Program-made: the position numbers and the translations under genes
Shown here: positions 7,890-45,391 of the stretch, piece by piece
Layout: each line of letters opens with the position of its first letter
How positions within the stretch are numbered: the first letter of the stretch is position 1
Notes under the pieces: generated by a model
The model's database searches: none
What the model saw: only the letters and a program-made list of their open reading frames with translations
What the model was told of the DNA's origin: nothing
NCBI GenBank assembly: GCA_032622095.1
Contig: CP136063.1
Coordinates: 71,155,980 to 71,219,979, forward strand
Origin: Siphonodentalium dalli
Taxonomy: Eukaryota; Mollusca; Scaphopoda; Gadilida; Siphonodentaliidae
Direction: 5' to 3'
DNA: 64,000 nucleotides

Positions 7890-8625
7890 TTACGCCTCAG
7901 AATTATTCACTGCGTAAGCATACTCATCACTGGTGTCAGGAATATTATGATTATTCACTCTCCCGGCGGTGTAGCCATAATGATCGGTACTGATATCGCT
8001 CTGGATGTGTTGGTATTCGTCTGCGTTTAGATCTTCACTCGGGCCGCCTACTTCTGCGGTTGTTACATAGCCATACTGATCGCGTTGTAGTATATCCTCT
8101 GGTGAATGTGAGGCTACATCTGTTTCTAGTGAATAGTCATCATCCGCCCTTTGTTCATTGTACCTAGCACTTTCTTCTAGAACAAAATAATTGTCATTGT
8201 TCTCTGTTGCCAGTTCACTTGCGGATGCTGGAAGCAAACCGTTTGGTGTTGACAGGGAATAACCACTACCCGGGTCAGATCGAACATCCGTTGATGGCGA
8301 TGAGAATTTGTAGGCTGTGTCATATTGATTCACTTGCGAGTCTCTTGGTAGTTCATATCCAGAGTTTGCACCTTGTCCCCCCTTTGCACGGAGTGTGTTT
8401 CCACTCGGGTGGTCGATAGATATATAGTCATAGTTGTTAGATTCTAATCCACTCATTTGAGGATCAGGTGCATGTGCTGATTTTTTGGTGACAGACTGGC
8501 TTGAACTAAGTTTTGGTAAATTATTATTGCCCTGGCCTGACGTTTCATAAATTGTTGCATAATCCTGTCCACCATGGATAGATTCTTTCGTTGGTTGTCT
8601 CAGAGTTGAACATCGGTCGAAGATC
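7890..8625 (-). CDS. Receptor terminal exon: tyrosine-rich cytoplasmic tail (244 aa)
   Basis: The minus-strand exon opens after a ttctag acceptor at 8626 and is open to the stop at 7890, giving 244 codons. Its first base completes an Arg codon left in phase 2 by the transmembrane exon, so the reading runs LRR-R-IFDRCSTLR. The tail is hydrophilic and acidic, with 18 tyrosines. Many sit in Y-x-x-[I/L/V] or acidic-Tyr contexts: YATI, YDYISI, YFVL, YQHI, YGYV and DEYAYAV. Such motifs suit SH2-domain or endocytic adaptor binding after phosphorylation, but no canonical NPxY or paired ITAM was found. Gln, Asn, Ser and Asp are enriched, suggesting intrinsic disorder. No AATAAA was seen between the stop and the repeat element starting 56 bp downstream. 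Function as a signalling or uptake receptor tail is inferred. Confidence 0.8.
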
Positions 8626-8793
8626 CTAGAAATTTAAAAACAAATATAGCATTAACAAATTGTGTATAGAATGACGAATCTAGTTGTAACCAATCAAATA
8701 CTCACAAGATGTATGCTCTTCATATTCAAAATTCTCGAATTATGGAAATTGAAAAATATCTCATGCCTTTGTGTCTAGCATATATAGCCAGTT

Positions 8794-9699
8794 TTAGTTA
8801 AAGACATATCATGAACTTGTTTTGGGTGCGTGCAATTGATAAGTTAGTACTCAGGCGCTATGCCAACCTTGGGAGTGCAGCATTATACTAACATTGGGTA
8901 ACATTTTAAAGAGATCGACCATACTACTCCATAGAAAACATCGTCTGAACAACGCGCAATTGTACATATTTACATCTCGATTCTGGAAGCAACAATCGGC
9001 GGTAGACCAACACAAATGATTTGGCCATCGACAGTCATTGCATTTAAATAATATATAAGAATGGCGATGTATGTTGTCAATTTGGACTATTTTTCGTGGA
9101 AAATAACGACATTGAGCAATATTATTCTTAATTTCTATTTGATCACCCTACCAGAGTGTTTCACACCACTTTAATTTAATCCACACTAAAATGTTGCTAA
9201 GATGAGATAAAGGATGTCAAAAAATGGCATAGCCCACGTTATAAGGGTTTTCTGGAGTATCATATTTAGAATTTAGCCCACACTCAGATTGCAGATAAAA
9301 CAAACTTGAGAAATGTTCTTTAAAGTGATGTGAAACATTCCGGTAGGATGATCAAATATAAATGGAGAATAATCGCGTTCGAAGTAGTAATTTTTACAAA
9401 TATTATATCCAAATTGACAACACAACCCGTCATTCTCATATAGTAATTAAATGCAGTGATTCTCGATGGTGAAATCGTTTTCGTTAGTTTATCGCCGATA
9501 GATGAGTCCCGAATCGAGTAGTAAATATTTCATTTGAGCATAGTTCAGACGATGTTTTCTATGGAGTGGTACGGTTGATTTGCTACATATTTTCGGCGAT
9601 GTTAGTAGAATGGTACATTCCTCCAGTTGGCATATAGCTCCTGGATACTAACTGAATAGTTCCACGCACCCGAACAAGTTCATCATATGTCTTTAATCA
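8794..9699. repeat. ~900-bp imperfect foldback element in last intron
   Basis: The two ~440-bp arms are inverted copies. Left landmarks, in order, are ttagttaaagacatatcatg, actccatagaaaacatcgtc, ttgcatttaaat, gttgtcaatttgg and gatcaccctacc. The right arm shows their reverse complements in mirrored order, ending in catatgtctttaatcaa at 9699. The symmetry centre is near 9245. No open frame of note. It probably represents an old MITE/foldback transposon. Sequence just outside each end (tgtgtatagaatgac at about 8660 and 9706) is also shared in direct orientation. Confidence 0.75.
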
Positions 9700-11114
9700 A
9701 CAAAGTGTGTATAGAATGACAAATGTAATATTGGAATCAATCATGAATTCACTATGTTTAAGCTGTCCACATATCAAATGCTCAAATTGTGGAAATAGTA
9801 GAAAATAGGGGAGGGTCAGTTAAGACCGATTATCTTTGACCGATGACAACAAATGTACTATTTTAGTTAAATACATGTATGCCCCTAAAGCAAGAGAACA
9901 CAACCATGCAAATATATTGTATTGCTCTCCTCGTGTGTGGAAAAATAACTGAACGTACATGTACCCCTATGTGAAAAAGTGCAGTTTTTACCACAATTTT
10001 GTGATTTTGAATTTACAAGTCATTGTCTTCATACATGTATGACCGTGTTGTTCTATACACCTTATATAACATATATACATAGATAGCCAAAATTCTGTCC
10101 TAGAGAATCCAAAGTGACATAAAATCAAGCGATTAGTTAAACATTTGAATTTCCAAACATTAGAAAGGCGACATTCTTGGATTTCAAAATTGAGAGAAAA
10201 AATACCACGAACCAGATGCCTGACCAGAAAAAAATACCACTGACCATTCATGAAGTTAAAATGAGGGTACATTTTGTGCATACAAACTCGGACCAGGACC
10301 CAACACTATTTATAACAGATGACATTTCAGATATATTTGAAGCTGCTGTCCGAATTGTTCAGCATTGAGCAATAAAGAGGGTTACCAGTTAGAATATTCC
10401 TGACATTGTAAAATAAAGGGCGTGTGTTCACTTCTGTAAGAAAAAATAGAAAACAGCTGAAACATATATATGACGTACTATTGAAAATGAATGCAGCTTA
10501 TGTGTCGATATTTCGGGTATTTATATCGACATGTCTTGTCCCTCCTTCTAAACTACTGAACGTAGTATTATGGTGGAGTACGTAATTTGGAGGTTCAAAT
10601 CAGTCATGTACAAGGGGGTATAAAATAGGTTGACAAATACATGAATATTGATATATCGGCTTTATACATATGTATGCTCTAAAAATACTTTCCATTGTCA
10701 CAGCCATTTTCCAGCTGTTTTTAATTGTTCGCGCAGAAGTGAAAGATACACTCTTTATTTCTATACCATACCATATCCGGACTCTACCATATCCATAATA
10801 GACCAACACAGAACGCCCTTTTGTGTTACAGGCCGTACAAATGGCTGTTTTTTGTTTTGTTTTTTTGGGACCCAAACATTATGTTTAACGTTGTATTTTT
10901 AATTACTTCAATGCGTCTTTCTGTGACATACAATGCTCGTAGTAAAGTATTTCAATTATTAATCGACTTATTTCGATACCGGAGAATTCAAAAGCGAATA
11001 TTATTAGATGTGTTTTGGAGCGCAAACAGCCAAATGGCTTTAATATGCACGTGCAAAGTAAACAATAGTAGGTTTGTCAGTATTCATCATATTTATTTGA
11101 TATTAAAGACATAG
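9700..11114. other. Intronic, nothing recognised
   Basis: Part of the last intron of the minus-strand receptor. The first 120 bp resemble 8655-8760 in direct orientation. No domain-bearing frame was found beyond that. Confidence 0.4.
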
Positions 11115-11268
11115 ATAGAACGACACAAGTGTGTGAACATGATAACGTTATTGCACGAGTTTGTTGTGACGCGATGGTAAAACGAGAACCGGAGGTTCGA
11201 GTTTTATCTCGCGGCACGACAAACGAGTGCAATAACGTTAACATGTTCACACAACTGTGTTGTTCTAT
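11115..11268. repeat. 154-bp foldback element, family A copy 2
   Basis: The arms begin atagaacgacacaagtgtg and end cacaactgtgttgttctat at 11268, with about 70-bp arms and a short loop near aaccggaggtt. The arms share order and words with the hairpin at 945-1108 (gttattgcacgagtttgttg versus taattatcgcacgag...tttgttgg). That indicates one dispersed family with divergent copies. Confidence 0.85.
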
Positions 11269-13049
11269 GTTTATTGCACACTCTGAAGATTGCAGCTTGT
11301 AACATACTAACATTTAGGTCGATATTGTTGTATTTAATTGAACAAACATTTGCTTAATGTAGACTATACCCCATAATTTAGCGAAGACATTTTCTGTTAA
11401 AGCTGACGTCGCCAGTGACGTTATTGACGTAATAGGTTTGTATTGTTCAAGAACAATACACATTTTTTTATTGAACGTTTCAATTATTCTGTATTTTGCT
11501 GTATTTCGCACAAATAAGCCATTGGGTGTGCAATAAAACCTTATAACGAACCAAAGCCGGACGCTTTGTGTCGTATATAGACTATATCTGATTTTGTGAC
11601 GTCACCAATTATTATCTAATACGACGCTGCTGTTTTGAAATTTTGCGAGCGCCTTTGTCGCATAGTAGATCGGTGGGCTTAAAGCATTAATGTCGTAATC
11701 GTGTATGTCTTTCAATTACCGGCGTTACAAAATGGGAGAAGTTACAATCGGAATGATGCAGAATGAAGTTCATTCGTAGCCGCGGTTTACATTTTATTGA
11801 GAACATAATTATGACATATTAAGGACTGTCAACTATTTGCATTGGAATTAATAGCCTAAAATAAAAATCGTGCGTGCAACTGCGTGCAATGGTAAAATAC
11901 CAATGACTCTGGAAGGGCGGGAGAAAATGTTGGTATTGAAATCGAAATTCGTGATGCAAACGTTATATCGCGTTCAAATTATCCTAATATTACATACGTG
12001 AATCTGATAATCCTTTGATATCCTTCTATTTCCATGAATTCACAAGGAACACATACTTAACAACAAAGCAGAAGATACATTCAAGTTTTCGCTAATTCGG
12101 TCTACAGTGAAAGCTACATGATGACGTTGTTCGTCGAGTTTTGTTGAAATCGACATGATGGCGTTTTATATAGTACACATCTCAATCGGATGGTGCACAC
12201 AGCGTCAATAATATAATCGTTAATTTCACTTAAATACTCCCCTCTCGACAATAGCCAACAGTCTTGTCTTTTGAACACTTTCAGTTTGATGTTCGGAGTT
12301 TATATTCTATAATAATTTGTAAAAAAGGTACGGCTTTTAAAAAAAAATTAGGTTTTAAGTCTGACGTGGTGAGCTCGTAGTCTGTTTGCATTGTGAATCT
12401 CCGATTGCTCACATACCCTGGTGTGTCATTGGCCTAATTGATATAAATTTGATGAACCATTGTGCATGTCTGAATTGTAATTAATCATACCACGACATAA
12501 GGCCTAAGTGAATCTTATCTGATGGGTATACGAATGTATGAAGTTATTTTTATAAAATTTAAAATAGGCAGATATATCCTAGCTTATGCGTGTGTTTTAT
12601 CTGTGGTTCGTTAATTACGCTAGCGTATGGTCATATTATATCATGATTTAAATACGAGTATTGGAGTGGTTTACAGAGAAAATAGCCGTCTGTGCTGCAT
12701 CTCCACTAAGAATAAAATTTAAAACGTCGTGATATGACCAAATATGAGTAAATACCAAAGTATCAAGTTAGTACTCAACCAACACTCATAAGCATGTAAA
12801 CGGAATGGGAGAAGTACGCTATTAAGTTCGATAACATGTGATCCCACATACAATTTGTGTAACGTGGCCATGCGTTCTTCGTATTTTTGAATATTTCATT
12901 GTCAGCATAATTATGTTTGTAAATTATAGTTTACAAGTGAACAATCATGTATATCAGTAGTTATGAGTGTGCATTGCTTCAAATGTGCTTGCTTTGATGA
13001 ACATGAACAAGTTCACATTTCTTATCGAAATGGTCATGTATCGATCAGA
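11269..13049. other. Intronic, nothing recognised
   Basis: AT-rich intronic sequence without repeats, RNA genes or exons I can support. Isolated tgacgtca-type words (for example near 11598) are too short to interpret. Confidence 0.35.
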
Positions 13050-13054
13050 ATTGT

Positions 13055-13195
13055 TGAGATGTCCCTCAACTCAGATCAAGCTTGAAAATCGGTCCCGATT
13101 TTCTCCCATGTCGGGATTAAATCCGTGTCAATATCGTCTAGCCCAGACTGCGATTATCGTATCCACGACCTAACCACATCGGCTACGGGGACATC
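13055..13195 (-). mobile_element. tRNA-derived SINE-like fragment
   Basis: Read on the minus strand, 13195-13100 resembles a tRNA gene head. A box-A-like gtagccgatgtggttagg (about 13170-13187) is followed about 50 bases later by a box-B-like cggatttaatcccg (about 13110-13125), the spacing of a class I tRNA promoter. No cloverleaf could be confirmed. The sequence continues into an unrelated body with a gaaaatcgggaccgatttt palindrome, as in SINEs rather than functional tRNAs. Confidence 0.45.
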
Positions 13196-14494
13196 CTTAA
13201 AGGAAAGCCCTTTCATCGACATTTGGGAAGTCTGAACATGGGTTCGAATATTGGAAAAGAAATAATCTATCACTATATTGGAACAGCACAGTGCACATCC
13301 TCAGAAATTGTATCTGTGAACATACGATTATTGGTATACTGGCGCATATACATGTAGATACCATATACTGTGAGTTAACAATACACATCTTCACTGGTTC
13401 GAATGTTTTGTATGTGGGGATTGCGACCAGGAATGGTGTCAACCGCTTTTTTGTACGTGCCATGGGATTCAAGCCAATACGCCAAGGAGTATATAGCAAA
13501 CTATATGTAATCGGGGTTCACGATTGGATGGCTAGTGGCATCTAATCGCGAGCACAGGTGGCACGTGATGTTCGATTGAATAGCAGAATGTTGGATATCA
13601 TATAATCCCATATCCCATAATATGTCAAATATAGCGAGTTATCGAAATATGAAATACAACGAAAAAGCGAAGTAGGAAAATACAGAGAAATATCGAACTT
13701 TAGCGAAATATAGAGCGAAATATAGAAATATGAAATTATTTTTATAAACAAAATAACGGAGATATTTGAAGAAGTATTAGGTGGTGATTCTGGTACTTTT
13801 TGGGAGGCACTCATGAGTCATAATCCATATTAACTGTTACTCGGGATTCGTATCCCAAACTTATAAAATTGAAGATTCACCAAAATATCTTAATAGCACG
13901 AAATTGTTCAAATATTGATTATTTATTAGACCAAAGGACTCATTGTGGTGAATTTTAGTCTCATACCGCTTGATATATGGAAGAAACATACATGTATATG
14001 TGTGAACTTATACCCTGTATAGTACTAACTTGTACACCGGATCCACCCTCTCTGCTAACTTGTATACATCATTCAGGTAGTGTGTGTGACACGGTGACAC
14101 CCAATAAACGCGAATCTTACATATGGTATATGTATACCTTTGAGGTTTATATTGGGAACGACAACTTCTCTATTTAAGCTTCGACAGGCTATAACATTTC
14201 ACATCTCTGGTGAGGACATCTACATTTATGTTGATCTACAACCTGTCAATACGCTCACCAAAACGCCAACGCGAGTAGCGGTGAAATATAATAAAGACTA
14301 TATATAACATTAACATAGTATGTTTCATATATCGCCGTCGATTAGAAACAACAACAATGGCAACTGTTATGTGGGCTTCGTTTGGAAATATAACTTAGAT
14401 GTGCGGCATAATAGTTTCCGCAACTATATATCAGAGCTGTATAGTCTGTATGTTCTTGAAGCTGGCGTTATTCAATCTAAACCTCGTTACTTAC
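13196..14494. other. Intronic with short gcgaaatatag array
   Basis: Mostly unremarkable intron. At about 13635-13735 a low-complexity run of gaaatatag/agcgaaatata words occurs. Plus-strand frames across 14320-14665 overlap the minus-strand transmembrane exon and are its shadows. Confidence 0.4.
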
Positions 14495-14567
14495 CTTCGA
14501 CGCAATACAACCAACACGATTATGCAAACAATTACAAATACTGCGATCACACTGCCCACGATTGCAC
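14495..14567 (-). CDS. Receptor transmembrane exon
   Basis: This minus-strand exon of 73 nt is bordered by a ttttctag acceptor and an aag|gtaagt donor. It encodes GAIVGSVIAVFVIVCIIV followed by LVVLRR, a single hydrophobic helix of about 21 residues with a basic stop-transfer end. The first codon is completed by the phase-1 donor of the Thr-rich exon (GGT, Gly). The donor is in phase 2 and matches the acceptor of the tail exon. The orientation is type I, with the stalk outside and the tyrosine tail inside. It is too short to appear as a long ORF and is supported by hydropathy and by phase matching on both sides. Confidence 0.85.
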
Positions 14568-15870
14568 CTAGAAAAGATAATATTGATACATGTTTAGAAC
14601 ACCGAATTCCTGTTCAGTTTTGTGCATATATGAACACTGATGTGTGGTGTATCAGACCTCTATAACATTATCCGACATTCATTCGATTCCCGTTTACGAC
14701 GTTATTATTTGGGAATAAAATCGGATCAGCATCGAGATATATTATTGCCTTCCGTGGACTAGAATAATCACCCCGAACATAATATAGCATATACCATGAG
14801 CGTATATTATACAATGTGCAAAAATCCCGAAAAACTTTACGTTGAATGCTGCTTGATTATTTCAATCTTTAAATATGCTATTTCATCGGAGGCAAACATG
14901 CAGTACAGTCATGACCATACTGGTATAGCTAGCAGTCAGTAGGCCCTACACATAAATGTATGCTGAATGATGAGGCATACCGTATAGCAGAGTACAGAGG
15001 CCAATTTCAATCAATATCCTAAAACTCTTTAAGTGATCAATTAAATACATGTGTGTACTAGTATACACATGTGTATAAGAGATAAATAGAAACTGATGTA
15101 ATTGTGATACACGCTTGATTGATCAATTGACCACATAGCTACTAACTGCATCTATATTCAAAAACATTTATTGCATTATAGGTCTTCAATTACGAGTAAT
15201 ACTAGTTTCGTACAATCTAAGACACACGAATCGGACCTCCCCTTTAAGACATAAAGGAACAAAGGCTTTAGCTATCACATTTATAACTCAAATTTATGCT
15301 ACAGTAAAACATTTAAAATTGGCATAGGTGATGTAATTTCACTTTGTAGTCTTTTAATTTTCCAACTACATTGAATAAGTTGTCATACTCCTATGTGAGG
15401 GAACTGATGTTATTGTCTGTGTCAGTTGATACAGATTTAACATTTTGAGCGAATGGTATCAGTCTGAGCTTGATAGCTGAGTCACATGATAGGAGTGAAC
15501 GACACTTCCGGAAGACTACTTGAATAATGTCTGAGAGTTCTCGGTCACCACAGTTAAGTTTGGCCATGCTCTAATTATTAATTATAACGCATGTGCACAT
15601 ATATGTATGTACCTCATTTAGATATGATATAATGTCACAATATAATGACAAGAATATAATTGAATTGAATCATAACGTAATGCCAAAATATACACATGGA
15701 CAACAGCAACGTTTCAACGTTTTGTGAGATGAATATGGTGGTAGGCTGTTGGCTGAGCTGAGTTAGGACCAGTATACATTCAGGAAATCGTGATGTAGAC
15801 CACTTTCAACAGCTTAATATTATAATTTAACATACACAGAACACAATGTGAGCAGAATGTGATCGTATAC
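14568..15870. other. Receptor intron
   Basis: No feature other than a short palindrome (acatgtgtgtactagtatacacatgt, about 15048-15073). AT-rich throughout. Confidence 0.4.
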
Positions 15871-16176
15871 CTGTATTAGTGCTGTTTGATTCAGAGGCTT
15901 TACTATGTTGAGATATCGTCGTTACACCCACCCCGTTGGGTGTAGTGGTATCTCCTCTCGGTGTAGTGGTATCTCCTCTCGGTGTAGTGGTATCTCCTCT
16001 CGGTGTAGTGCTATCTCCTCTCGTGAGTATTGTGGTCGCTACCAAAATTGTTGTGTTGGCAGATTCCGATACCGTCGCCGATGACGTCTGGGCGCTGGTT
16101 AATGACGCTTTTGTGTCTGTGACTTCTGTTGTGGTAGTGACTGTAATTGTTGGCAATAGAGTCGTCGACTGTTCGA
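15871..16176 (-). CDS. Receptor mucin-like stalk exon with four RGD heptads
   Basis: This minus-strand exon of 306 nt (102 codons) lies between a ttattttgcag acceptor and an acag|gtatac donor, with both borders in phase 1. The peptide is dominated by Thr and Ser (for example TITVTTTTEVTDT and TSSATVSESANTT), as expected for an O-glycosylated extracellular stalk. The central part is a perfect tandem heptad, RGDSTTP then RGDTTTP three times, from a 21-bp minisatellite at 15939-16022. RGD followed by S or T is the classical integrin-recognition tripeptide context, but binding is only inferred. The exon joins in phase to the cysteine-module exon upstream (Val codon at the junction) and to the transmembrane exon downstream. 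Confidence 0.8.
15939..16022 (-). repeat. Coding 21-bp minisatellite (RGD heptad array)
   Basis: Four 21-bp units with the plus-strand unit ggtgtagtggtatctcctctc are nearly identical; the differences are single bases that mostly change RGDT to RGDS. Near identity points to recent expansion or gene conversion, so copy number may vary between alleles. Confidence 0.85.
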
Positions 16177-19760: not shown

Positions 19761-19779
19761 TAATTTTCAACGTTACACC

Positions 19780-23464: not shown

Positions 23465-23719
23465 CTGAGCATGTGTATGTCACACATAATATCTTCCACT
23501 GAGCCGATACTATCGTCGACAAATGTGTATTGAAGATGGTGCATTTCTTATAATTGGTGCACAGTGTGGCTATATTCTGCGAAAATATGTCTCCGGGGCA
23601 AACGTCAGTATCGTCACTGCGACATGTTAAGTCTCCTATTGATTTGATGGGACCATCGTTGGTGCAGTCAACGACGAGTCTGTTGCCGGTCTTTTGACAA
23701 TTTGTCTGTGTGCCGCCAT
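23465..23719 (-). CDS. Receptor exon: 8-cysteine extracellular module 2 (RBL/SUEL-like)
   Basis: This minus-strand exon of 255 nt (85 codons) lies between a tttttttacag acceptor and a tcag|gttagt donor, phase 1 at both ends. It reads from GGTQTNCQKTGNRLVVDC and ends WKILCVTYTC. Eight cysteines, the L-x-x-x-C start, the LCTNYKKCTI segment and the hydrophobic V-T-Y-T-C end resemble the rhamnose/galactose-binding lectin (SUEL-type) domain. The hallmark YGR and DPC motifs are missing, and the seventh cysteine lies only five residues before the last. It is therefore a very divergent member or a different cysteine-rich fold. Symmetrical 1-1 phase fits modular shuffling. It is followed in phase by the RGD stalk exon and preceded by a homologous module exon. 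Confidence 0.75.
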
Positions 23720-27860: not shown

Positions 27861-27865
27861 CTTGG

Positions 27866-30800
27866 TTTGTTTAAACATATTTATTAAGCTAAACACAGCT
27901 TAAGGGATCGGAGCTCTTCCAACAAATGTTACAAATGATAAAAATACAGAAGGTGACATTTACAGCACAATACAATTACATTCAATGCAAATATATTTGC
28001 AGAAAACCCGTCATCCGTGTTCCACTGGCGACAGGAAGGGACTCTCTACCACATATCCATCTGATTTGTAAGATCTCCATTCGAGGTCTTAATGTACAAT
28101 TAAAGGTGATTCTTCGAAGCTATTGGTAGCATTGATGTATGACTGTACTGGTCCCCGAAAAGTACTTTTTCTGTTGTTAAGACTATTATATCAAAACGAT
28201 CAAGCATGATTTGTCTCCGTAAGAAGTACAGAGGACACATGGAAATGAAATGAAATGCTGTTTCTTCTTAGTATCCACAAGTACAAATAGGGGATAATTA
28301 TGAAATTTATCAAAATTTAGGTCACTACAATTATTTCGCAGTCTACAATGAAATATATTGGATTTTCGATTTCCCACATTAAACCATTCCGGTGGTTTAA
28401 TAACTAAGATTTTCTCGCATACCTTTGACACGAGCTGATTTGTTGTTTCAAGTTTACTCGTTTCGTCTGGAAGCGAATTCCACTGTTTTACCATGCCGGG
28501 GAAAAATGAGTCATGATAATAGTTAGTGTTCCCTACCAAAATATCTCAGGATATCTGAGCTTATGAGATTTATTATCCCCTACACGTTGGGGCAAAATAT
28601 TAGTCAAGTATGAAGGGGCTTTGTGACTTAGAATTTAGTGAAAAGCGCCGACTTATGTGTGTGTCTTCTCTATTCGTGACATCAAGCTCATTTCTATCAT
28701 AAGTCGTTTATTTGAAGCAGAACGTGTTAACCCGCTGATTATTCTAGCAGTTTCAAACTGCAGTTAATCAAGAATTTCGAGGAGTTTGTTGGGAGCACAA
28801 TCCCAAATAGCATCACCGTAATCGAAGAGGGGTAGTATATATGCATTGTATACTAGCAATAATGTTTTCCTTGACAGTCTAAATTTAAGCTTTCTTAATA
28901 CGGATAAGCGTGCAGCCACTCTTTGTGCGATGTCGTTTATTTGAAGATCCCAGCCCAGATTCGATTGGATTTGTAGCCCCAGCTGGTTTTGTGATTCAGA
29001 TATTGGGAGGGATGTGGCATCAAATTATATACTATTTTCTAAATCATGTCTTATTGCGTTGGATGAGACCGCAAATTGTAAAACATTTGTTTTTAACGGA
29101 TTAAAGCTGACAAGCCACGTACTGGACCATTTATGTATTACACTGATAGCTCTACTTGTCTTGTGCATGAATTCGTCATGCTCTTTGTGACTAACAGTTG
29201 GGCACGTATCATCGGCATATACTCGCGCTATTGAGTGTATGTTATCTGCCAAATCATTGATTTATACAAGGAATAGGAAGGGTCCCAGAGCATACCCATG
29301 GAGGACTCCATCATGAATAAGCTTGTTTTCGGAAAAGGTGGTTCCCACGAGGACACATTGTCTGCGATTACTTATATAATCAGATAACCAGGTCAGACAT
29401 TCGCCCACAACTCCCATAAGATTCTAACTTCGCCAAAAGACATATGTGCCAAACCCATTTCAAACGCTTTAGAAATGTCACAGAACACAGCGCAAATGTG
29501 TAAACGGTTATCAAGTGACAAGCACAAAGAATGATATAGTTCAACTAAGTGTAATGTAGTACAATGCAAAGGTAAAAAGCCAGATTGATATGAGTATATT
29601 AGTTCGTTTTCTTTAAAATGACTCAATACGTTTTTTAATATTTGTTTTTCAAATATTTTTCTGAGGCAGCATACACATGTAGAAGTGATATTGGTCTGTA
29701 ATTATTCGTGTCCGCTGGGTCACCCTTCTTGAATATTGGAACTACGTTGGCAACTTTCCATGAGCTTGGGAAACGACAGGTCGCGATCGATTTAGTAAAT
29801 ATTATCAACAATGTCGAAGTTATTTCACGCGCAGTTTCTTTTAGCATTCTCTGGCTAATTCCATCGTGTCCGTGTGCTTTATTAATGTTTAAGGAGCAAA
29901 TTTCGAGTAGTATATCTTCAGGTTGTAATTTAATCGTGTTTAGCTGCTTCGGGCATTTCGGTACTAATATTGGTACGCTATATTTATTTTATTCGTTGAT
30001 TTGTCCATTCCCTATGAAAGCATAATTCAACAAGCTAGCTTTAACCATATCATCTGTTGCTACCTGGCGATGTGTGGTGCCGTCTGACACATCTGCTTTT
30101 TACAGCGAGGGAATCGCTGTCATTTTGTTTTTACCCATCAGGTTTTTCGTCAAGTTCCAAAAATATTTAGACGAGCAGGAGTTTTCTATATGTTCTTGTA
30201 TATTATTTTCGTATGACTTCTTGGCATACTTTATCATATTATTTACTTTATTTCGAGTTCGATTGAATTTGTCATGGTCCAAAAATCGTTTCGATTTAAT
30301 GACTAATTTTCTATATCTATACCTGCGCCGTATCTGGCATCTTAATTCGGACGTGAACCATGGCTTATCATTCGGGCGAATTAATACTTTACGTTTCGGA
30401 TCGTTATCATTCATAATTCGCATGTAAGTATTACTAAACACTGATACTGCATTATCTAAATATAGTGGTCTTAACTTATCGACCCAATTTATATCTAAAA
30501 TTTGAGCACGTGATTTCGAAAAGTCAGCTAAGTCGTATTTCCTTATGTCACGATATAATGGTTCATCCACAACTAAAGACAGAATAGCATAGACCCCATA
30601 GTGGTCAGAGACAGCCAAATCAATAATATCCGCGTCGTACGAAACGACGGTGTCACTGACAATAACAGGGTCAGGTAACGGCTGTGATGATTGTTAAAGT
30701 GTGAAATAATACCTTTGAGGGTTGTGTTGGGGTTTAGAAGATTAGAGTTGAAATCTCATACAAGTACAACGTTTGTTGTCACATCGAGTGCTGAACGGAT

Positions 30801-31363
30801 ATAATTAGTAAGTTGTTGCCAAAAATTAGCCGCCACAAAATCGTCTGACCAATATGACACTCCAATAACATAGCGAGTCTTATTAGACAAAATTTCTACC
30901 CGTATAGAATCTTCGCTCTCTAATTCGTATCGCCGAAGGTATGATAAGTTTTGAGATACATACAGCATATCCCACCTCCTTGCTCATTTCTATCTTTCCT
31001 AATCGGGGAACAGAATGACTCTATTAAAAACATTTATGATGGAAAGTCGACACTGAGATGAGTTTCAGTGAAGCAAATTATCTCATATTGGCTTATGATA
31101 TCAACTATAGAGAAATGTTTATTCCCAATACTCCTAATGTTATAATGGTAGACAGAAATATTGCCAGGATATTGGGCAACCCCATGAGTTGGGTGAACGT
31201 CGCCAGCTAACAGGATTAACAGTGAAAGTAGCAGGACAAACTGAATGTTTATCGAAATACTGATACCCTTATTCTTTGAGTAATAGCTTTTCTTAGACCC
31301 CTGGAGCGCAATACTATTAAACAAACCTATGACTGCTCTAAATTGATCTAAAACTATGCCCAT
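27866..31363 (-). pseudogene. Decayed CR1-like LINE (endonuclease, reverse transcriptase, 3' UTR)
   Basis: In minus-strand order, an AP-endonuclease start (VYHYNIRSIGNK and CFTETHLS) lies at 31034-31363, with further endonuclease pieces at 30756-30968 and 30600-30720 (GDFNSNL; SDHYGVYA). The linker and RT start lie at 30100-30618, then NYRPISLL at about 29700. FCDISKAF is at about 29480, GVLHGYALGPF followed by a stop at about 29290, and the catalytic YADD at about 29220. The C-terminal part has SFFPGMVKQWNSLP (28480) and a CTCGY...EETAFHF...CPLY knuckle near 28220. The 3' UTR ends cttaataaatatgtttaaac at 27866. Several frameshifts, stops and a deletion in the RT palm make it inactive. The 5' end, including any ORF1, is missing or unrecognised. 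Confidence 0.85.
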
Positions 31364-32079
31364 GGTGGGACATATTCAGGAAAAGCTTGTTTTATGAGGG
31401 CAGTCATATGGAGAATAATTATGTGGCAGGGAGTCCTTTCAGCCAGTGGAACTGTAATGTGCGAGTGCAAACAATTGTGTGTAATGTAATAAAAAAAAAT
31501 ATAGACACAAAAATGTAAGTGCGCATGATGGAAACCATTTCATATGGTAGAGTGGGCCGTGTTATGTCAGTACGTAAACACCAGTTGACTTGAAATGAAA
31601 ATTTCATCAAAGTTCTTGGGTACAAAGAATGTTTAGTCACATATAATGTAATGTATCTTACTAAGCTATTGGGTATTTACAGGTTTTCGTGAATAGGCTG
31701 TATATGTTAATATCACTGGTCGGTATGTACTGGTATATACTGCAAGTTAAATACGTAAGCCATGATTGGAAAACGTGTCTTACAAATCTTGTCAAATTTG
31801 AATGTGTCATTAATAATTACAGTGACTCTCATCAAGTATTGATGAAGATTTGAATTAAAAGTTGTATATTTTAACTGTGTAAAGTAAACTCAATCGATGC
31901 GGTTAAAGGTGCATTACCAGTAAATATAAATGTACATAATGACAAACCTTCCAGCTCACTATAATATATGAAATAGAAACTTTCAACTGCTCATGGGTCG
32001 CGAGCTGGACTGAGTATAAAGAGTTAAATTAATTAAAAGTTCAAAATCACCACAACAATGTCAAGTATGAATCCTGAAT
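31364..32079. other. Non-coding spacer
   Basis: Upstream of the CR1-like relic. The frame at 31419-31640 (minus) shows no LINE or other domain I recognise. It could be residual LINE 5' sequence or unrelated intron. Confidence 0.3.
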
Positions 32080-33950: not shown

Positions 33951-34079
33951 GGGGATTTTGGATCTTGACTTGGGACCTTTGGTTTTGGTGAGTTTGAAGC
34001 CTGTTTACATTTCAAAATGTTGTCAGTTTTGTATCGTCTGCAGCGGAACTCGGCATGTTGAAGCAAATGTTACAAGGCA

Positions 34080-34990: not shown

Positions 34991-35059
34991 TCAGGTAGAA
35001 ATTGTAAAATATCTACCCTGGTGTCCAATATGGAGCACCTCAGAAAACATTCGCAGGGC

Positions 35060-38500: not shown

Positions 38501-38989
38501 CCAACTAATCCCACTCACCATTATACGTATGGTGAATCGTTGTGATCACGGCGTGAAAAATCAATAATATAGCCTATGCAGTAGTAATCTGATACTGAAT
38601 ATTTACAAAAATGGTATTATTGCTGTACTATAGAACACACTTAACCAGTATTGCGAGTTTTTACATATAACAAAGCTTCGAGTACTATGAAAACATGAAA
38701 ATATGAAACTTTCAGACCCCCTTTTTCACCACCAAATGGAGATTTTCCGATCAAGTGAATCCCGGTATATAGATGGTTCCCCACAAAGATCATTATATAA
38801 GTCCTTAGTTGTCAATGTATTCTGCATATAAAGAGTTTTGGGCATATATTGAGTTTCAATTTACAATCAAAGAAATATACTAATAGAAATACAGTCGAAT
38901 ACTATAGAACACAAAATATGTATTACAAAATTAGTAAATTACAAATTAACACTGATATTACAAAAATTGTAATCTATAATATAGGACAC

Positions 38990-39090
38990 AGAGTCGTTAT
39001 TTGGTGGGAGAATCTGGATTCAGATTAAGGATTAGATTTCGTCGTAATCCGGATTCAGATTCTGATTCCGATTACGGACTCAAACGTTCA
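38990..39090. repeat. Inverted-repeat arm, partner at 42585-42665
   Basis: The phrase gtcgttatttggtgggagaa, followed by tctggattcagatt and several ggattcagatt-type words, is inverted in 42585-42665 (aatccagattctcacgaaataacgac). The pair flanks about 3.5 kb of nested repeats. Confidence 0.6.
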
Positions 39091-39999
39091 TAATTTAAAC
39101 AAACCGAGATTTCGCCACCTCGGAGTTTAAAAACACAATAAAACATAATAATCCGCCCCTTCTATACAACTTATTGCAGAATATAAACGTTCTATATCAA
39201 AGAATTTTAAATGCGGAGACAAATTTGTGTTATCAAGTGTAAACGGGGAGAATATTACTGAAATTAGCCAAATAATAATGTTATTGATAGTAACGCTGGG
39301 GGAGCACTTCGGTTGATGGCGAACTTGAATTCATTATGTTCATTTCATCATTCCAGCCATAAAATACCGCCCGAACGCATGTCGATTTCAAATTCGGCGG
39401 ATACGTCACCATTGATCAAATTCACGTGAACCTGCATGGATACGTCTTCTGCTTTGTTCGTTATTATATGTTCCTTCTTATTCAAGAAATAGTAGGATTA
39501 TATGATATCGATGGATTATCAGATACACGTATGTACTAGCTATCTAGTCTTATAGAAATTTCATATCAATAATGTTTTGTTTCGTTAAATGCAGTCGTTT
39601 TGCACAATAGGCTGTGTATAGTGCAAACACACAGGCATTTTTGGCCAATGTGCTGTACATTAGTTGGAAAATAAAGCTTTGCTCATGAAGCTAATGTTGT
39701 GGTCTTGTGAACGTGGACGTGAACTACATCTCCCAATCGCACAATCACAAATGTAAAGCTTATTCTTGTATATCAGGACTGTATAGTGAAAATGTCAGTC
39801 AATTTATTGATTAAGTACCGGTACCCACACGTACAGGTTCTAGGGACGTGGCTAGAGGTTTCACATGGGAGTGCTCCATCAAATTTCCGGACAACTGCAC
39901 TCCCCCCCCCCCCCCTGAATCAAACTCACATTTTCGCAGAATTCAGAATTCCATTTGCCCCCCCCCCCCTTGGAAATATCCAACCTGACACACCCTAAG

Positions 40000-40255
40000 A
40001 TTGGAAAATTACCAACTTTTACTGGTTGAAAAATCAAACATTCCAACCTACATATGGTGTCAAATTAATTTCCAACTAATGTTGTGTCACGCATGAAATT
40101 TCCAACTGCTGGAAATGTACCAAAGTTTAGTTTAAACATATTTATTTGTCAAATTTAGATAACACATGATATATAAAACATATATTTGTTTATACAGACA
40201 ATGGGATTGGAGGACAAGTGCTGACTCACTTAATGGTACCCCCTCTCATATATGT
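40000..40255. repeat. Dispersed ttggaaa repeat joined to LINE-like 3' tail
   Basis: 40000-40125 carries ttccaac words in opposite orientation to the 17-kb copy, including ccaactaatgttgtgtcacgcatg. Next, tttaaacatatttatttgtc at 40131 resembles the 3' terminus of the CR1-like LINE at 27866, suggesting a short LINE tail on the minus strand. Confidence 0.45.
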
Positions 40256-40257
40256 TA

Positions 40258-40965
40258 CTAGCAGGTTAGCCAGCCACTGGCGGCAATCGTCAGAAACATG
40301 ACAATTTTAAATTGTTTTAATTAACTTTTTTAATTAATTTTTTAATTTAATTTTTTGTTTCTCAATGAGTTAATTGTGCCTTTTTAATTTAATGGTTTTT
40401 TTAATAAACGTTTTTAATATAATTTTTTGTTTTTCGATTTGACCTTGAATTGATCATTTTCAAGGTCAAGGTCAGGTCGGGGTCACAATTTAACCCGTCC
40501 ATGACACTTCCCTACTGACACTTCCCGTAGGTAGCAAGTTTGAGCTCAATCGGTTGGAGTCTATAAAGGACACACACATATATATCATTTGTGGGTACCC
40601 GTTTCAAGGTGAAGATCACCTTGGGCGGAAATACTGACCCGATGAAAATCTCCCCGTTCCTAGGAAGCCGTAAGTACGAAATTAAGTACGAAATTTCGCC
40701 TCGAGACGGTCAATGGAGCCGTATTTATACTAGTCGTGTATATAGACGCTCTTTATCATCGACACTGCGGATACGAACGCTCTTTAACTATCAATGCGAT
40801 TAACCCCGCAGTGCCGTTTTGTGACTGAGAGTGGAGAACGGGTGCTCTGAGCTTCTCCAAAACACCGCGACGGCCATTCCCGTGGCTGTTTACCCTTAGA
40901 TAGGTAGTTTGGTCTCGATCGGTCCAGCCGTTTTCGATTCTATAGCGTCTATATATATACGTAGT
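40258..40965. repeat. Dispersed element B, copy 1
   Basis: Begins at gcaggttagccagccactgg. It runs through caaggtcaaggtcaggtcgg, aagtttgagctcaatcggtt, gggtacccgtttcaaggtga and gttcctaggaagcc, and ends with gcgattaaccccgcagtgcc and ttttgtgactgagag. The same landmarks in the same order form copy 2 just downstream. Non-coding; origin unassigned. Confidence 0.7.
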
Positions 40966-40995
40966 TCTCAAATTATATAGTAGAATAGTAGACTA

Positions 40996-41612
40996 GCAGG
41001 TTAGCCCGCCACTGGCGGCAATCGTCAGAAACATGACAATTTTTAATTTTTTAATTAATTTTTTTTAATTAATATTTTTATTTAATTTTTTAATTTAATT
41101 TTTTGTTTTTCAATGAGTTAATTGTGCCTTTTTAATTTACTTGATTTTTTAATTTTATTTTTTGTTTTTATTTTTTGTTTTTCAACTTGAACCGATTTGA
41201 CCTTGAATTGATCATTTTCAAGGTCAAGGTCAGGTTGGGGTCACAATTTAACCCGTCCATGACACTTCGCGTAGGTAGCAAGTTTGAGCTCAATCGGTTC
41301 GAGTCTATAAATGACACACACATATATATCATTTGTGGGTACCCGTTTCAAGGTGAAGATCACCTCGGGTGGAAAAACTGACCAGATGAAAATGTTCCCC
41401 CGTTCCTAGGAAGCCCTAAGTACGTAAGAATCACACACAGAAGCGAGTTCCATTTCGATCGATAACGTAAACAAAAGCCGTATGCGAAAGCCGAAGGGAA
41501 TAAAGAGCGTTAACCGGTTAACAAAGCAAAATATGGACAACATAATGAGCACTAATGCGTTAACCCCACGGTACCGTTTTTTGTGACTGGGAGTAGTTCT
41601 CAAATATAGAGG
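40996..41612. repeat. Dispersed element B, copy 2
   Basis: A directly repeated, slightly shorter version of 40258-40965. It starts at agcaggttagcccgccactgg and ends near gcgttaaccccacggtaccg and tttgtgactgggagtag. High identity in the first ~420 bp and divergent middles suggest one family with variable internal segments. Confidence 0.7.
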
Positions 41613-42123
41613 AGATTACACTGAATAATAAATAATTGATAATGGCAAAGCAACATGACTACCAAAAACACGTTGAACATATATGTATATATATATATAT
41701 GTATTTGTTTATAATCGGGTTTGTTTGTTGCGTTTGCTGGCTTGCATTGTACGTATCATTATTTGGAATAGTTAGTCAAAAGAATCCTGATTTTCCTCAC
41801 GTATGAATAACTGTACAGCTAAGAAAATTGTACCAAAGTTCGGGGGGGGGTCGAGACACCCCAACCAACCCTGTTCCTGCACTCCTGACAAGTTTCGTGT
41901 GTTCTCCACAACGTCTTCTAAATTTGATTCAGGAGATCTAGAGCTGTTATAAATGCGTGCCCTCATCAATAAACAGACTTTAATTTGAAAAAAAGATGCG
42001 ATTAAGTGGGATTGGCAGCTAATTAGGTGCCATATATATACACATAGAAGAAAAGCATGACTTTCACAACAAGCATGAACATTATAAATATAAGATACAA
42101 ACAAGAGGTGTGCACTCGAGTGC

Positions 42124-42528
42124 TATCATACCCCCACAAACCCAACAAAAAAAAATTTAACTTTAAAGAAAAATTCGGACTAATAATATCGATATGGTGT
42201 CACAAGAAGCTTGTACAGAAAAAATTATTCAAATTGGTTCATATTTGTTAAAGTTATTAAGTCAGACAGAATGTTCTAAGTCAAAATAAGTCGAAAATGA
42301 AGCGTAACTTGAAAAAAGAAAGTCGGACCTAACCGCAATTAGCATCATGTGGAGAGACCGTCCTAAGGAGATTGCATAAATTTTTTTATTGAAATCGGTT
42401 CATAGTTGTTCGAGTTATGAGGTCGGGCGGACGGGCGGACGGACACATCACGGAGGGAGAAAGCGTGACGGACGGACGCAGTCAATCCAGTATACCCCCA
42501 TTTTCTTCGAAAGTGGGGGTATAATGAT
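42124..42528. mobile_element. ~400-bp MITE with tatacccccac ends
   Basis: The left end atcatacccccac and right end gtgggggtataatgat are inverted. A second internal hairpin, tataccccca...tgggggtata, sits at 42491-42522. The interior carries the phrases ttgaaatcggttcatagttg, ttcgagttatgaggtcgg and cggacggac. No coding capacity. Confidence 0.65.
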
Positions 42529-42670
42529 ATTTGTGTCGAATACATGAGCAACGTTAAACATAGTATCGGAGACCATGTGGATTTCAAAATCTGACCTAGA
42601 ATCGGACATTAGCCCCGCCCCCGTAATCGGATTCGTATTCTGAATCCAGATTCTCACGAAATAACGACTG

Positions 42671-43961
42671 GGGTCAATACTATGAATAATTATACACCTG
42701 CAAATACAAATATCATTTATTAATTTGTAAGAACAAGTTTCTGTTAACTATCAGTGGTTTCATAGTATAGCGAAAATTGAGACTTATATTTTATTTGTAC
42801 ACTAAATTATGAATATACAAACATATAGTTAATATGTCGCGAGAAGCAGGAGAGATATCAAGAGAGATATAGAGCGAAAGGGGGGAATAGAAGACGTGGG
42901 CCAGATGAGGTCGTGAGATGATGACAGTGGTGGGGAGTTTTCAATAACTGGGTTGTTGCGTGAGTAGGAATGATGCTAGTATATATAGAAATCGTCATGC
43001 GACAGGCACCATGGAGGAGCTTAATCACAATTGCTACATATATGGTGGGGAATGTAATGCTGCCGCATAACGCAGCCGGAATCCAGATAAATTCGTTACC
43101 AATGCAAGTAGATAGAATCATGGGAATATTTTTGTTCTCATGATATATGTCTGTACTGCATTAACTATTTGTTTGTTTTCGCGAATGCTAATTTCCCTTG
43201 ATCCCCACAATATAGTATTCTCAGATAGGACAACGTTGGGTAGGGAGTCATTTCGTTCTCTTCTGGGCTCTTGATTAAATTTACATCTAATGAGATAGTG
43301 GTGTGTTGTCTCAAGTTCCTCTCATAAACAGAAGAGGGATTTTTTATTTACATGATTATGTGTCAGGTCACAACTCGGGTGGCTGCAGTTCGGGTATGAA
43401 GGATATGAGATTTGCGGCATTTACTATGATAAAACTAGACAGGTGGGCGTATATTGTCTCTGTTGAATTCCTTTTTGAAGTCTTCGAGTGTAGTACAGTG
43501 TACTGCTACTCTTTGTAGTTTCCGGCAGTTTGTTCCATTCAGTAATAGAAGTTGGTAAGAAAGAATCCATATAATAGTCATAGTTAATATTCGGGGGTAC
43601 ATGATATTTCCAGCTGATAAAACAATTTCACAAGGTGGTGGAACGAATCGACCCTGTCCGTGCGTATCATAAATGGGTATATGATCCGGTTTAAGGGTGT
43701 GAAAAATAAAAAATTGATGTTTGACAACCCATACGGAGACCTCTAGCCACATTCATTAAAGTTATAACTTTCAATTAACTTTCATAGTACTCGAAAATTC
43801 TTTGTGATTGTGAGATATTAGTAGTTACAAAGAACACATATTATTTGTGATTTATGTTTGTAATTGTAGGTTCATAGTATTAGCGGAATGAGAAATTGTT
43901 ATTTCTTACAAAGAATTGTAGAATACTACACAGAAAATGCTTCATAGTATTGACCCCTGTA
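42671..43961. mobile_element. Candidate inverted-repeat element with ggggtcaatactatgaa ends
   Basis: Left end tggggtcaatactatgaa and right end ttcatagtattgaccccta-type sequence (43944-43961) are reverse complements over about 17 bp. A possible ctg target duplication flanks them. Further tactatgaa/ttcatagta words lie inside (43783 and 43871) and outside (about 38685). It carries a LINE 3' fragment in its middle. Confidence 0.45.
43150..43640 (-). pseudogene. LINE 3' fragment (CR1/L2-like C-terminus)
   Basis: The minus strand encodes YYMDSFLPTSITEWNKLP (near 43530-43590), then TLEDFKKEFN, and after frameshifts a C-x-C...TTHHYLIRC knuckle and RRERNDSLPNVV near 43230-43330. These are the C-terminal landmarks of CR1/L2-type ORF2 proteins. 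Frameshifts and stops separate the pieces, so it is a dead, truncated copy. Confidence 0.65.
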
Positions 43962-45139
43962 CTTGCGTCGATTCCCATGAATAAAATAACGTGTAAGGGT
44001 ACATGTACATTCACACACTGATAATATTGCACGGTATGTTTTGCAGGTATTTCATCATAGAAAACCATATGTCGCCAAAATATGCACAGCAACGTGCATA
44101 ATAATACAATGCATCTTTACATATAAACTAACGGCATGATAATTAAAATTGATGTAGTTCCACTGTATAGTTAATGCTTTATGTTCTCTTATTCTATGGA
44201 ACATGATAGGGTTTTGATAATAGAGATTTATTAAAAAGATGATAGAACGAGAAGGAACACACATTATATACATAATACATGTATATAACAATCTCCCGAG
44301 TCCCGATCAACATGGCGACATGATGGCGTACGTCTTACGGAGCATGGTGTTTGTGCCTCACGCGTGTTCGGTTTATTTTCGTAAATATTGCGACATACTG
44401 TATCATTAATCAAAAGCGTTCGCAATCGAAATTGTGATAAGTGCGTTTAAAACGACCGGTTACTCTTATTTTTTTTTGTATTTTTTTTTTTTGTGGATAA
44501 AAGTGCACTCTTATATTCCCCAGGATTATGTTGAAGTAGCGCGATGAATAGGTCAGAATATTGAGAAAATGATAGAGGTTGTTAATTGCACAGGATTACT
44601 ACTGATGCAGATTCAGCTCTATTGAGTCCGAGTTGTATATTTGACTAGCAACAAATATACCTATACCTGTAAATGAAACTCAGATGTGTTTGAGATAGAA
44701 ATTTATTTTGCCACTAGATAATAAGTGTAGCAATAGGCAGGATAAGCCTTGCAATGCAAACACATCCGTGACAGTTGTACGAACGCATATACATTTAAAA
44801 AGTACAACGTTTTTGGTCACAACCATGGTATTGTACTCTGAATAATACAATCCAGACAGTTTGTGTTTAACGAGTGATTTCCAAGAAAAGAAACAAGGTT
44901 AGACACCTGTATTTAAGAATTCACGAAGATCATTAGCTAATAAAGCTTTCGGCAAGATATCATAGTTCGTGCATGTACTCATATTTAACCCTGAATTCGT
45001 TTGAGTTTGGTATCGCCCGGTGAAATTTAGACGAGACTTACATGATGCACAAATTATGTCGGGTAAAATATATCAATATAAAAACTATTCGTACAAACCT
45101 AATATGTTATACCATTTGTCGATTTATCTATTGTCTTAC

Positions 45140-45391
45140 CTTTGCATTCAAATGTTATGCAAGCAAATCTATATTCGATATCTTCTAACTTTAGCTCCAA
45201 CATCGACCTTCCACAATAATATGAATTTTGTTTACCGATCTGTTCACAAGCTGTCCTGAAGTTGGATTTCTTCTCTATACAGATGGTGCAGGCTGCATTG
45301 CTCACCTGTATGTAGTTAGCATGACAATCCAATCCGAGATTTTGGTCATTCTTGTGAACACATTTCGGCTTCGGGTCACGACTTAGCGTAC
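45140..45391 (-). CDS. Receptor exon: 8-cysteine extracellular module 1 (RBL/SUEL-like)
   Basis: The minus-strand exon I prefer is 252 nt (84 codons). It runs from an acceptor after a tttttctttcacaatgaag tract to an aaag|gtaagac donor, with phase 1 at both ends. It contains KCVHKNDQNLGLDC and ends FACITFEC, with eight cysteines aligning one-to-one with the module at 23465-23719. The frame remains open to 45533 (about 47 more codons), so a longer exon using a more upstream acceptor is possible. That upstream part overlaps a dispersed repeat, which argues for the shorter exon. The donor joins in phase to the next module (Asp codon). As in module 2, YGR and DPC lectin motifs are absent. The exon(s) before it, including the signal peptide, were not identified. 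Confidence 0.65.

What the first reader, a model, noticed from the sequence alone, without database searches (positions are those of the whole stretch)
7890..45391. Undescribed type I receptor reconstructed over 37.5 kb from phase-compatible exons
Five minus-strand exons (45140-45391, 23465-23719, 15871-16176, 14495-14567, 7890-8625) each have GT-AG borders. Their phases (1, 1, 1, 2) match at every junction, giving two cysteine modules, an RGD-bearing mucin stalk, a TM helix and a tyrosine-rich tail. The architecture is not one I recognise from a named family.
Basis: partly seen in the sequence, partly recalled or inferred. Interest (0 to 1): 0.8.

Follow-up and report, generated by a model that had tools for sequence, protein, structure and literature searches.

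The report
Mosaic animal receptor family, tyrosine-rich tails
The five exons do form most of a real-looking cell-surface receptor gene, one of an apparently undescribed family in this (probably molluscan) genome whose outer parts seem to be swapped between copies while a tyrosine-studded inner tail is kept, a pattern typical of recognition receptors.

Summary
In detail: the five exons have AG/GT borders, phases 1-1-1-2, and join into one open 539-codon frame. It is not chance. Paralogs on the same chromosome (C3) and on C1 repeat the order Cys-module, Cys-module, Ser/Thr stalk, TM, Tyr-rich tail, with the same phases wherever I cut exons. The tail is under purifying selection (dN/dS 0.35, p=0.0003) and keeps its tyrosines far better than other residues (15 of 16 vs 41%, gene B vs C'). 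Corrections: no signal-peptide exon was found for this gene (candidates exist for A, A', C), and the RGDs come from a 21-bp repeat absent from the five other stalks compared. The modules pass no Pfam cut-off; a SUEL-lectin-like origin is suggested, not shown. Most interesting, outside the window: the C1 counterpart B' looks like a mosaic (A-like modules, C-like stalk and TM, B-like tail), and a related tail lies near a WSC exon. Best reading: a lineage-specific, recombining family of recognition receptors signalling through SH2-docking tyrosines. Function is inferred; no expression data were available.

The parts
45140..45391 (-). Exon: Cys-module 1 (8 Cys, about 83 aa), phase 1-1
   Evidence: paralogous module-1 exons in A, A', C, C', B' with phase 1-1 borders. 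The exact acceptor is inferred from the AG and the upstream pyrimidine tract only.
23465..23719 (-). Exon: Cys-module 2 (8 Cys, 84 aa), phase 1-1
   Evidence: paralogous module-2 exons in A, A', C, C' and B' with phase 1-1 borders
15871..16176 (-). Exon: Ser/Thr-rich (mucin-like) stalk, phase 1-1
   Evidence: stalk exons of 153, 162 and 156 nt in A, A', C and 300 nt in B', all multiples of 3; D stalk frame
15939..16023 (-). 21-bp x 4 tandem repeat that encodes the RGD-containing units
   Evidence: no RGD in the five other stalks compared
14495..14567 (-). Exon: transmembrane helix plus basic stop-transfer, 73 nt, phase 1-2
   Evidence: TM exons 73/73/76 nt in A/A'/C, 76 nt in B', 73 nt in a D-type gene
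7890..8625 (-). Terminal exon: cytoplasmic tail (245 aa from this exon, 18 Tyr, six YxxI/L/V motifs) and stop codon
   Evidence: 92% nt identical to the B' tail on C1
48392..52237 (-). Open frames of a LINE-like element (reverse transcriptase at 49339-50857) upstream of module exon 1; it would lie in intron 1 if the first exon is further upstream
   Evidence: open frames; RVT_1 hits; a 211-bp piece at 52230-52440 has 27 other matches in the genome

Best explanation
The window holds most of one gene (B) of a lineage-specific family of type I receptors in an animal genome that is probably molluscan. SHOWN by sequence: two tandem one-exon Cys-modules, a Ser/Thr stalk, one TM helix with a basic stop-transfer, and a long tail rich in conserved tyrosines, more of them in YxxI/L/V contexts than shuffles give; a three-gene cluster A-B-C on C3 with a counterpart on C1; tail under purifying selection. 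STRONGLY SUGGESTED: exons exchanged between copies (B' looks like a mosaic; C/C' modules were homogenised). INFERRED: the paired modules bind a ligand on another cell, microbe or matrix; the stalk holds them off the membrane; ligand clustering lets Src-type kinases phosphorylate the tail tyrosines, which dock SH2 proteins (and, unphosphorylated, some YxxPhi sites may serve endocytosis). The fixed tail gives one kind of output while duplication, gene conversion and exon swapping vary the recognition part, so the family works like a non-self, allo-recognition or scavenging receptor set. Confidence: a real, functional gene family about 0.9; Tyr-tail signalling about 0.7; recognition or immunity as its role about 0.5.
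For: Open joined frame and phases. Own-genome paralogs of modules and tail in two matching clusters plus further tail copies. Same splice phases for module, stalk, TM and tail exons. Candidate signal-peptide exon conserved between A and A' inside a 1.9-kb, 89%-identical block, and one in C. Tail dN/dS 0.35 (B/B', p=0.0003) and 0.32 (C/C', 190 codons, p=0.001). Tyrosines: 18 of 18 kept B vs B'; 15 of 16 aligned Tyr of B kept in C' against 41% of other residues; YxxI/L/V 6 observed vs 2.3 in shuffles, P=0.015. Mosaic B': tail tree groups B+B' 100/100; concatenated modules group B+C against A+A'+B' 94/93; TM region 92.6% to C over 272 bp but 70% to window B over 91 bp. C/C' modules 0 synonymous changes in about 98 sites vs 15.5 in 120.5 in the tail (p=8e-5). 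A WSC exon (E=5.2e-11) about 9 kb upstream of a related tail.
Against: No transcript, ligand or kinase data. The first exon of this gene was not found. No ITAM in any of three tails tested, and no ITIM in B or A, so the output is unspecified. P for no Tyr hit among the 30 B/B' changes is only 0.087. Module exons of A/A' do not show significant constraint (dN/dS 0.90 and 0.43; p=0.61, 0.08) and the A/A' tail neither (0.49, p=0.16). The AU test does not reject B+B' as a module clade (p=0.128 for each module, 0.052 concatenated), and the tree tool warns of long branches. Some copies look damaged: the C tail on C3 leaves frame near its end, D1 has an internal stop, and matches to the A/A' tails run on past stops.
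Confidence: 0.6

Rival explanations
1. A developmental or neural guidance receptor of the EVA-1 type (two galactose-lectin-like domains, TM, cytoplasmic tail), diverged in this lineage, rather than an immune or allo-recognition receptor.
For: Same gross plan: two lectin-like modules then TM; in C. elegans EVA-1 both lectin-like domains, TM and tail are needed (PMC4133157, passages). The modules show weak SUEL-like signals.
Against: No Pfam family above cut-off in the tail; many copies and apparent mosaic ectodomains are unlike a conserved guidance receptor; module homology to SUEL not established.
Confidence: 0.15
2. An adhesion or phagocytic scavenger receptor whose YxxPhi tail mainly drives endocytosis of bound particles, with no immune-type signalling switch.
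For: Five non-overlapping YxxPhi sites in B; SUEL-like and WSC ectodomains suggest glycan binding; amphioxus FrLRR is an example of a phagocytic receptor attributed to exon shuffling (PMC10199209, passages).
Against: Tyrosines outside YxxPhi sites are conserved as well, and a tail of about 245 residues exceeds what sorting alone needs.
Confidence: 0.25
3. The exons are relics: the locus is a decaying copy whose open frames survive by chance or by recent duplication.
For: No first exon found; a LINE-like element lies upstream of module exon 1; other copies look damaged.
Against: Five open exons with intact splice sites over 37.5 kb and dN/dS 0.35 in the tail since the B/B' split.
Confidence: 0.1
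4. The exons belong to two genes, or alternative exons intervene, so the exact five-exon joining is wrong.
For: Introns of 21.4, 7.3, 1.3 and 5.9 kb (from the coordinates) leave room; no cDNA.
Against: Exon order is repeated in A, A', B' and C, with the same phases where cut.
Confidence: 0.07

Closest known systems
EVA-1 / EVA1C (galactose-lectin-domain TM receptor)
   Same: Two Cys-rich lectin-like ectodomain modules followed by one TM helix and a cytoplasmic tail
   Different: Modules here pass no SUEL cut-off; tail is long and Tyr-rich with no Pfam family above cut-off; many-copy family with apparent mosaics
SUEL / L-rhamnose-binding lectin domain (PF02140; latrophilin lectin domain, CSL3)
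   Same: Eight Cys by inspection, five of them invariant in the alignment of module 2 types with two SUEL domains; module 2 ends L-x-V-x-Y-x-C; one paralog hits PF02140 at E=0.0026; sole PDB match of the module profile up to E=10 is a rhamnose lectin
   Different: Below cut-off (18.5 vs 31.4 bits); no YGR or DPC segment in the window modules; profile-profile comparison found no full-length match
Hydractinia Alr and Botryllus fester/FcoR allorecognition families
   Same: Diversified membrane receptors; Tyr-based signalling in FcoR partners and Hydractinia candidates, ectodomain variation (Botryllus review PMC12065747, passages); clustering is recalled
   Different: There ITAM, hemITAM or ITIM motifs, and fester itself has no known signalling domain (same passages); Ig-like or sushi ectodomains. 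Here no ITAM match, unassigned Cys-modules or WSC; no polymorphism data
WSC-domain membrane proteins
   Same: A related TM and Tyr-tail in this genome lies downstream of a WSC exon
   Different: No WSC match in the window gene
Amphioxus FrLRR (phagocytic receptor attributed to exon shuffling, PMC10199209)
   Same: Lineage-specific receptor explained by exon shuffling
   Different: FrLRR lacks a cytoplasmic tail (passage); unrelated domains

Membership tests
SUEL lectin domain (PF02140) | Score above Pfam gathering cut-off | tested here: not met
   of 11 modules (9 of alignment A1, L047, B' module 2) one reaches 18.5 bits (cut-off 31.4); the other ten have no SUEL match up to E=10
SUEL lectin domain (PF02140) | Profile similarity beyond the cysteine pattern | tested here: inconclusive
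   only PDB hit is 5h4s rhamnose lectin, E=6.4; scores of three SUEL domains reached by 104, 38 and 16 of 1000 Cys-fixed shuffles; hhalign finds no full-length match
SUEL lectin domain (PF02140) | YGR and DPC sugar-site segments (recalled as typical) | tested here: not met
   absent from the window modules by inspection; present in the latrophilin row
SUEL lectin domain (PF02140) | SUEL fold | tested here: inconclusive
   AlphaFold model unusable, pLDDT 34.7, two-row alignment
EVA-1 family | Two SUEL domains | tested here: inconclusive
   two modules of one type, SUEL membership unproven
EVA-1 family | EVA1/FAM176-type TM and tail domain (recalled) | tested here: not met
   no such family among the 6 hits of the joined 539-aa protein up to E=10
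ITAM/ITIM immunoreceptors | ITAM YxxI/L-x6-12-YxxI/L | tested here: not met
   none in tails of B, C', A
ITAM/ITIM immunoreceptors | ITIM [S/I/V/L/T]xYxx[I/L/V] | tested here: not met
   none in B or A; two in C'
Allorecognition receptor families (Alr, fester) | Clustered paralogs with exchanged or diversified ectodomains | tested here: met
Allorecognition receptor families (Alr, fester) | Ig-like or sushi ectodomains | tested here: not met
   no such Pfam hit up to E=10
Allorecognition receptor families (Alr, fester) | Genetic linkage to compatibility | not testable with these tools
   no population or crossing data
RGD integrin ligands | RGD conserved among relatives | tested here: not met
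   RGD only in the window stalk's tandem repeat, not in A, A', B', C or D stalks

The most novel reading that the evidence does not exclude
A previously undescribed molluscan recognition repertoire in which a conserved multi-phosphotyrosine TM-tail cassette is paired, through exon shuffling and gene conversion between two chromosomes, with interchangeable ectodomains (a new Cys-module family, WSC, perhaps more), giving many specificities with one signalling output.
Probability: 0.3. Interest if true: 0.78.

Novelty: new variant of a known kind. Interest (0 to 1): 0.55.

Why it matters
Diversified multigene receptor families with tyrosine tails are known from a few groups (vertebrate NK-type receptors, Hydractinia Alr, Botryllus FcoR; partly recalled). 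A family with unassigned Cys-modules, a conserved tail and signs of exon exchange between chromosomes would add a testable candidate for non-self recognition in another lineage. It also shows that gene models spread over tens of kilobases of repeat-rich introns can be assembled from phases and paralogs. If the role is instead guidance or scavenging, the value is a well-supported annotation and a candidate new ectodomain family.

Tried and rejected
Fold of module 2 with module 1 as alignment: pLDDT 34.7, not used for any fold search. Profile-profile comparison of modules with SUEL domains: no full-length match. Shuffle control of the SUEL link: suggestive only. Signal-peptide exon for the window gene: candidates at 52353-52401 (in a repeat) and 61555-61690 (rejected only because it overlaps, antisense, the helicase frame); weaker ones listed were not pursued. 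RGD as an integrin site: rejected as a repeat by-product.

Mended on re-check: and the module-2 rows I had used B' module 2 without its start and took it for shortened. Its exon is 267 nt with phase 1-1 borders and 9 Cys, so it is not counted as damaged, and the trees were rebuilt with the longer form (concatenated support 94/93 instead of 97/96, AU p 0.052 instead of 0.073). The window's own tail acceptor was not printed because that scan began too far into the frame; one search shows it in phase 2.

Organism: genome notes with nine chromosomal pseudomolecules (30 of 12,541 papers listed, 12 of 4,267): none listed fitted a 2.2-Gb genome. Molluscan haemocyanin family: nothing, and no control rang, so not informative. 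Muscle-myosin exons: the best 8 rows of the PDB search are, as I recall their sources, scallop and squid myosins (405 to 394 bits), ahead of tarantula (351) and vertebrates (342 and below), so probably Mollusca. [quoted passage not shown] C3:211503550 (weak module match; read) was not pursued.

Literature searches for this architecture (listed 15 of 3,113, 15 of 49, 6 of 6, 9 of 9, 10 of 14) listed nothing that describes it; for most of these only titles and abstract starts were seen.
Full report
OBSERVATION. All five exons are present at the stated coordinates on the minus strand with the stated borders, and the joined frame is open for 539 codons to a stop at the end of the last exon. Lengths 252, 255, 306, 73 and 736 give junction phases 1, 1, 1, 2. 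The two first exons each encode one module with eight cysteines; the third is Ser/Thr-rich and carries RGD triplets; the fourth is a hydrophobic helix ending in basic residues; the last encodes 245 residues with 18 tyrosines. Four phase matches alone are weak evidence (about 1 in 81).

PARALOGS. The genome (2.23 Gb in nine contigs; the window is C3:71155980-71219979) was searched exon by exon. The two modules gave 12 matches from 18 scored candidates at E<=10; two of the 12 are the query exons themselves. TM plus tail gave 30 matches from 40 scored at E<=1, two of them the window's own exons. They fall into a cluster of three genes on C3, all minus strand: A (about 71.330-71.318 Mb), B (the window gene) and C (about 71.144-71.126 Mb); and a counterpart on C1, all plus strand: A' (196.236-196.249), B' (196.271-196.353) and C' (196.366-196.388), with D-type tails at 196.498, 198.718 and 198.927 Mb. 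More distant tails lie on C1 at 91.3, 197.3-198.2 and 234.5-235.2 Mb and on C2. The tool says such counts are lower bounds, and many of the distant matches to the window tail are weak (E about 1e-5 to 1).

GENE STRUCTURE IS REPEATED. Module exons of A, A', B', C and C' are single open exons with AG/GT borders compatible with phase 1-1. Stalk exons of A, A', C and B' are 153, 162, 156 and 300 nt, all multiples of 3. TM exons are 73, 73, 76 and 76 nt in A, A', C and B' and 73 nt in a D-type gene, all 1 mod 3 as in the window. Tail acceptors in phase 2 were found in 8 of 8 tail loci examined, the window's own included. I did not cut the C' stalk. Upstream of A and A' lies a conserved candidate signal-peptide exon (MKRVDSW...) with a phase-1 donor, in a block 89% identical over 1.9 kb; C has another candidate. 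For the window gene no convincing first exon was seen in 18.6 kb plus 20 kb upstream; the best candidate lies in a repeat with 27 other matches listed.

SELECTION. Between B and B' the tail exon has dS 0.163, dN 0.056, ratio 0.35, p=0.0003; C and C' tails (190 codons) 0.32, p=0.001; A and A' tails 0.49, p=0.16. Modules of A and A' give 0.90 (p=0.61) and 0.43 (p=0.08), so constraint there is not shown. All 18 tyrosines of B are kept in B' although 30 of 245 residues differ (probability of no Tyr hit 0.087). Against the more distant C', 15 of 16 aligned tyrosines are kept but 41% of other aligned residues (p=3e-5), and against A 10 of 15 versus 29% (p=0.007). The alignments were made with BLOSUM62, which favours Y over Y, so these p-values are somewhat generous. 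YxxI/L/V sites number 6 in B versus 2.3 expected from shuffles (P=0.015), 7 in C' (P=0.008), 4 in A (P=0.07). No ITAM was found in the three tails; ITIM matches only in C' (two).

EXCHANGE BETWEEN COPIES. In the tail tree B and B' are sisters at 100/100, and the tails are 92% identical in DNA. Yet B and B' modules share only 23 of 74 and 22 of 78 aligned residues. In the module trees B' goes with A and A': 89/87 for module 1, 81/82 for module 2 and 94/93 concatenated. Holding B and B' together is not formally rejected (AU p 0.128, 0.128 and 0.052) and the tool warns of long branches, so this leg is moderate. The TM region of B' is 92.6% identical to that of C over 272 bp, with an identical TM peptide, but only 70% over 91 bp to that of the window gene. 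B' is thus best read as a mosaic of A-like modules, C-like stalk and TM, and B-like tail. This rests on assigning the B' exons to one gene by order, strand and phase; no cDNA was available. In the opposite direction, C and C' modules have no synonymous difference in about 98 sites (3 non-synonymous ones) while their tails have 15.5 in 120.5 (p=8e-5), which points to gene conversion or recent exchange of the ectodomain part between chromosomes; an assembly error could mimic it. Some copies look damaged: the C3 copy of the C tail leaves frame near its end, D1 carries an internal stop, and matches to the A and A' tails run on past stops.

OTHER ECTODOMAINS. About 9 kb upstream of a related tail at C1:234.745 Mb I read a WSC exon (PF01822, E=5.2e-11), with a TM frame of the same kind in between. 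Linkage into one gene is by proximity and strand only. Ectodomains of one 197-Mb tail and one D-type tail were not identified in the 20 and 10 kb read upstream.

WHAT THE MODULES ARE. The joined protein and the modules have no Pfam match above cut-off; module 1 alone has a sub-cut-off hit to DUF5374 (E 0.00095), which I take as chance. Of nine aligned modules one (gene C module 2) matches SUEL_Lectin at E=0.0026 over profile positions 27-80 of 80, below cut-off; two further modules gave no Pfam match. The profile of the nine finds a single PDB sequence up to E=10, an L-rhamnose-binding lectin, at E=6.4. Five cysteines are invariant when module-2 types are aligned with two SUEL domains, and the final L-x-V-x-Y-x-C agrees. 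Against this, hhalign finds no full-length match, Cys-fixed shuffles reach the real scores in 1.6-10.4% of draws for the three SUEL domains tested, the YGR and DPC segments are missing, and the structure model failed. I file the module as unassigned, SUEL-like at most. True SUEL domains exist elsewhere in this genome.

MECHANISM. Shown: exon plan, TM, tyrosine conservation, purifying selection on the tail, duplication. Strongly suggested: exchange. Inferred from general knowledge: secretion through the signal peptide of the missing first exon, ligand binding by the paired modules, phosphorylation of tail tyrosines by Src-type kinases with SH2 docking, and endocytic use of some YxxPhi sites. 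The combination of a fixed tail and changing ectodomains is what recognition receptors show, which is why I favour recognition over guidance; this is inference.

ORGANISM. Not given. Three muscle-myosin exons, joined as one query, rank scallop and squid structures first in the PDB (species of those entries recalled), 394-405 bits against 351 for the next, so Mollusca is likely. A nine-chromosome chiton is compatible (PMC12005716, passages) but untested.

VERDICT. A good first reading: the gene looks real and has no Pfam family above cut-off. It is ordinary in plan (type I receptor) but interesting as part of an apparently recombining family.

Noticed in passing
C1:234.745-234.755 Mb (L042): WSC-domain exon and a GG/RRR-type TM frame upstream of a related Tyr-rich tail: apparently a different ectodomain with the same cassette.
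   Followed up: partly
C1:196.366-196.370 Mb vs C3:71.141-71.144 Mb (L003-L005, L007): Ectodomain region of gene C is about 99% identical between two chromosomes while the tail region is 93%: gene conversion, recent exchange or assembly artefact.
   Followed up: partly
window 48392-52237 (-), with further frames to 55143: LINE-like element with reverse transcriptase frames; a 211-bp piece at 52230-52440 has 27 other matches listed in the genome, many at 98-100%, so it looks young. Frames at 54157-54732 had no Pfam match.
   Followed up: partly
window 28189-31375 (-): By eye, a second, degraded stretch of reverse-transcriptase-like frames inside the intron between modules 1 and 2; the one piece scanned (29638-29988) had no Pfam match.
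   Followed up: partly
window 60167-61886 (+): Helicase-like frames on the opposite strand; one of three pieces scanned matches Helicase_C (61554-61886, E=1.1e-9).
   Followed up: partly
C4:158-292 Mb: Many repeated myosin-head exons (more than a dozen gene copies by eye), some in open frames of 859-1553 codons: a possible myosin expansion.
   Followed up: no
C1:204574200-204574700 (L047): Isolated exon with the same eight-Cys module pattern, weakly matched (E 0.4 and 0.1): a possible further distant member.
   Followed up: partly
window 3988-4362: Short-period repeat giving long low-complexity open frames on both strands.
   Followed up: no
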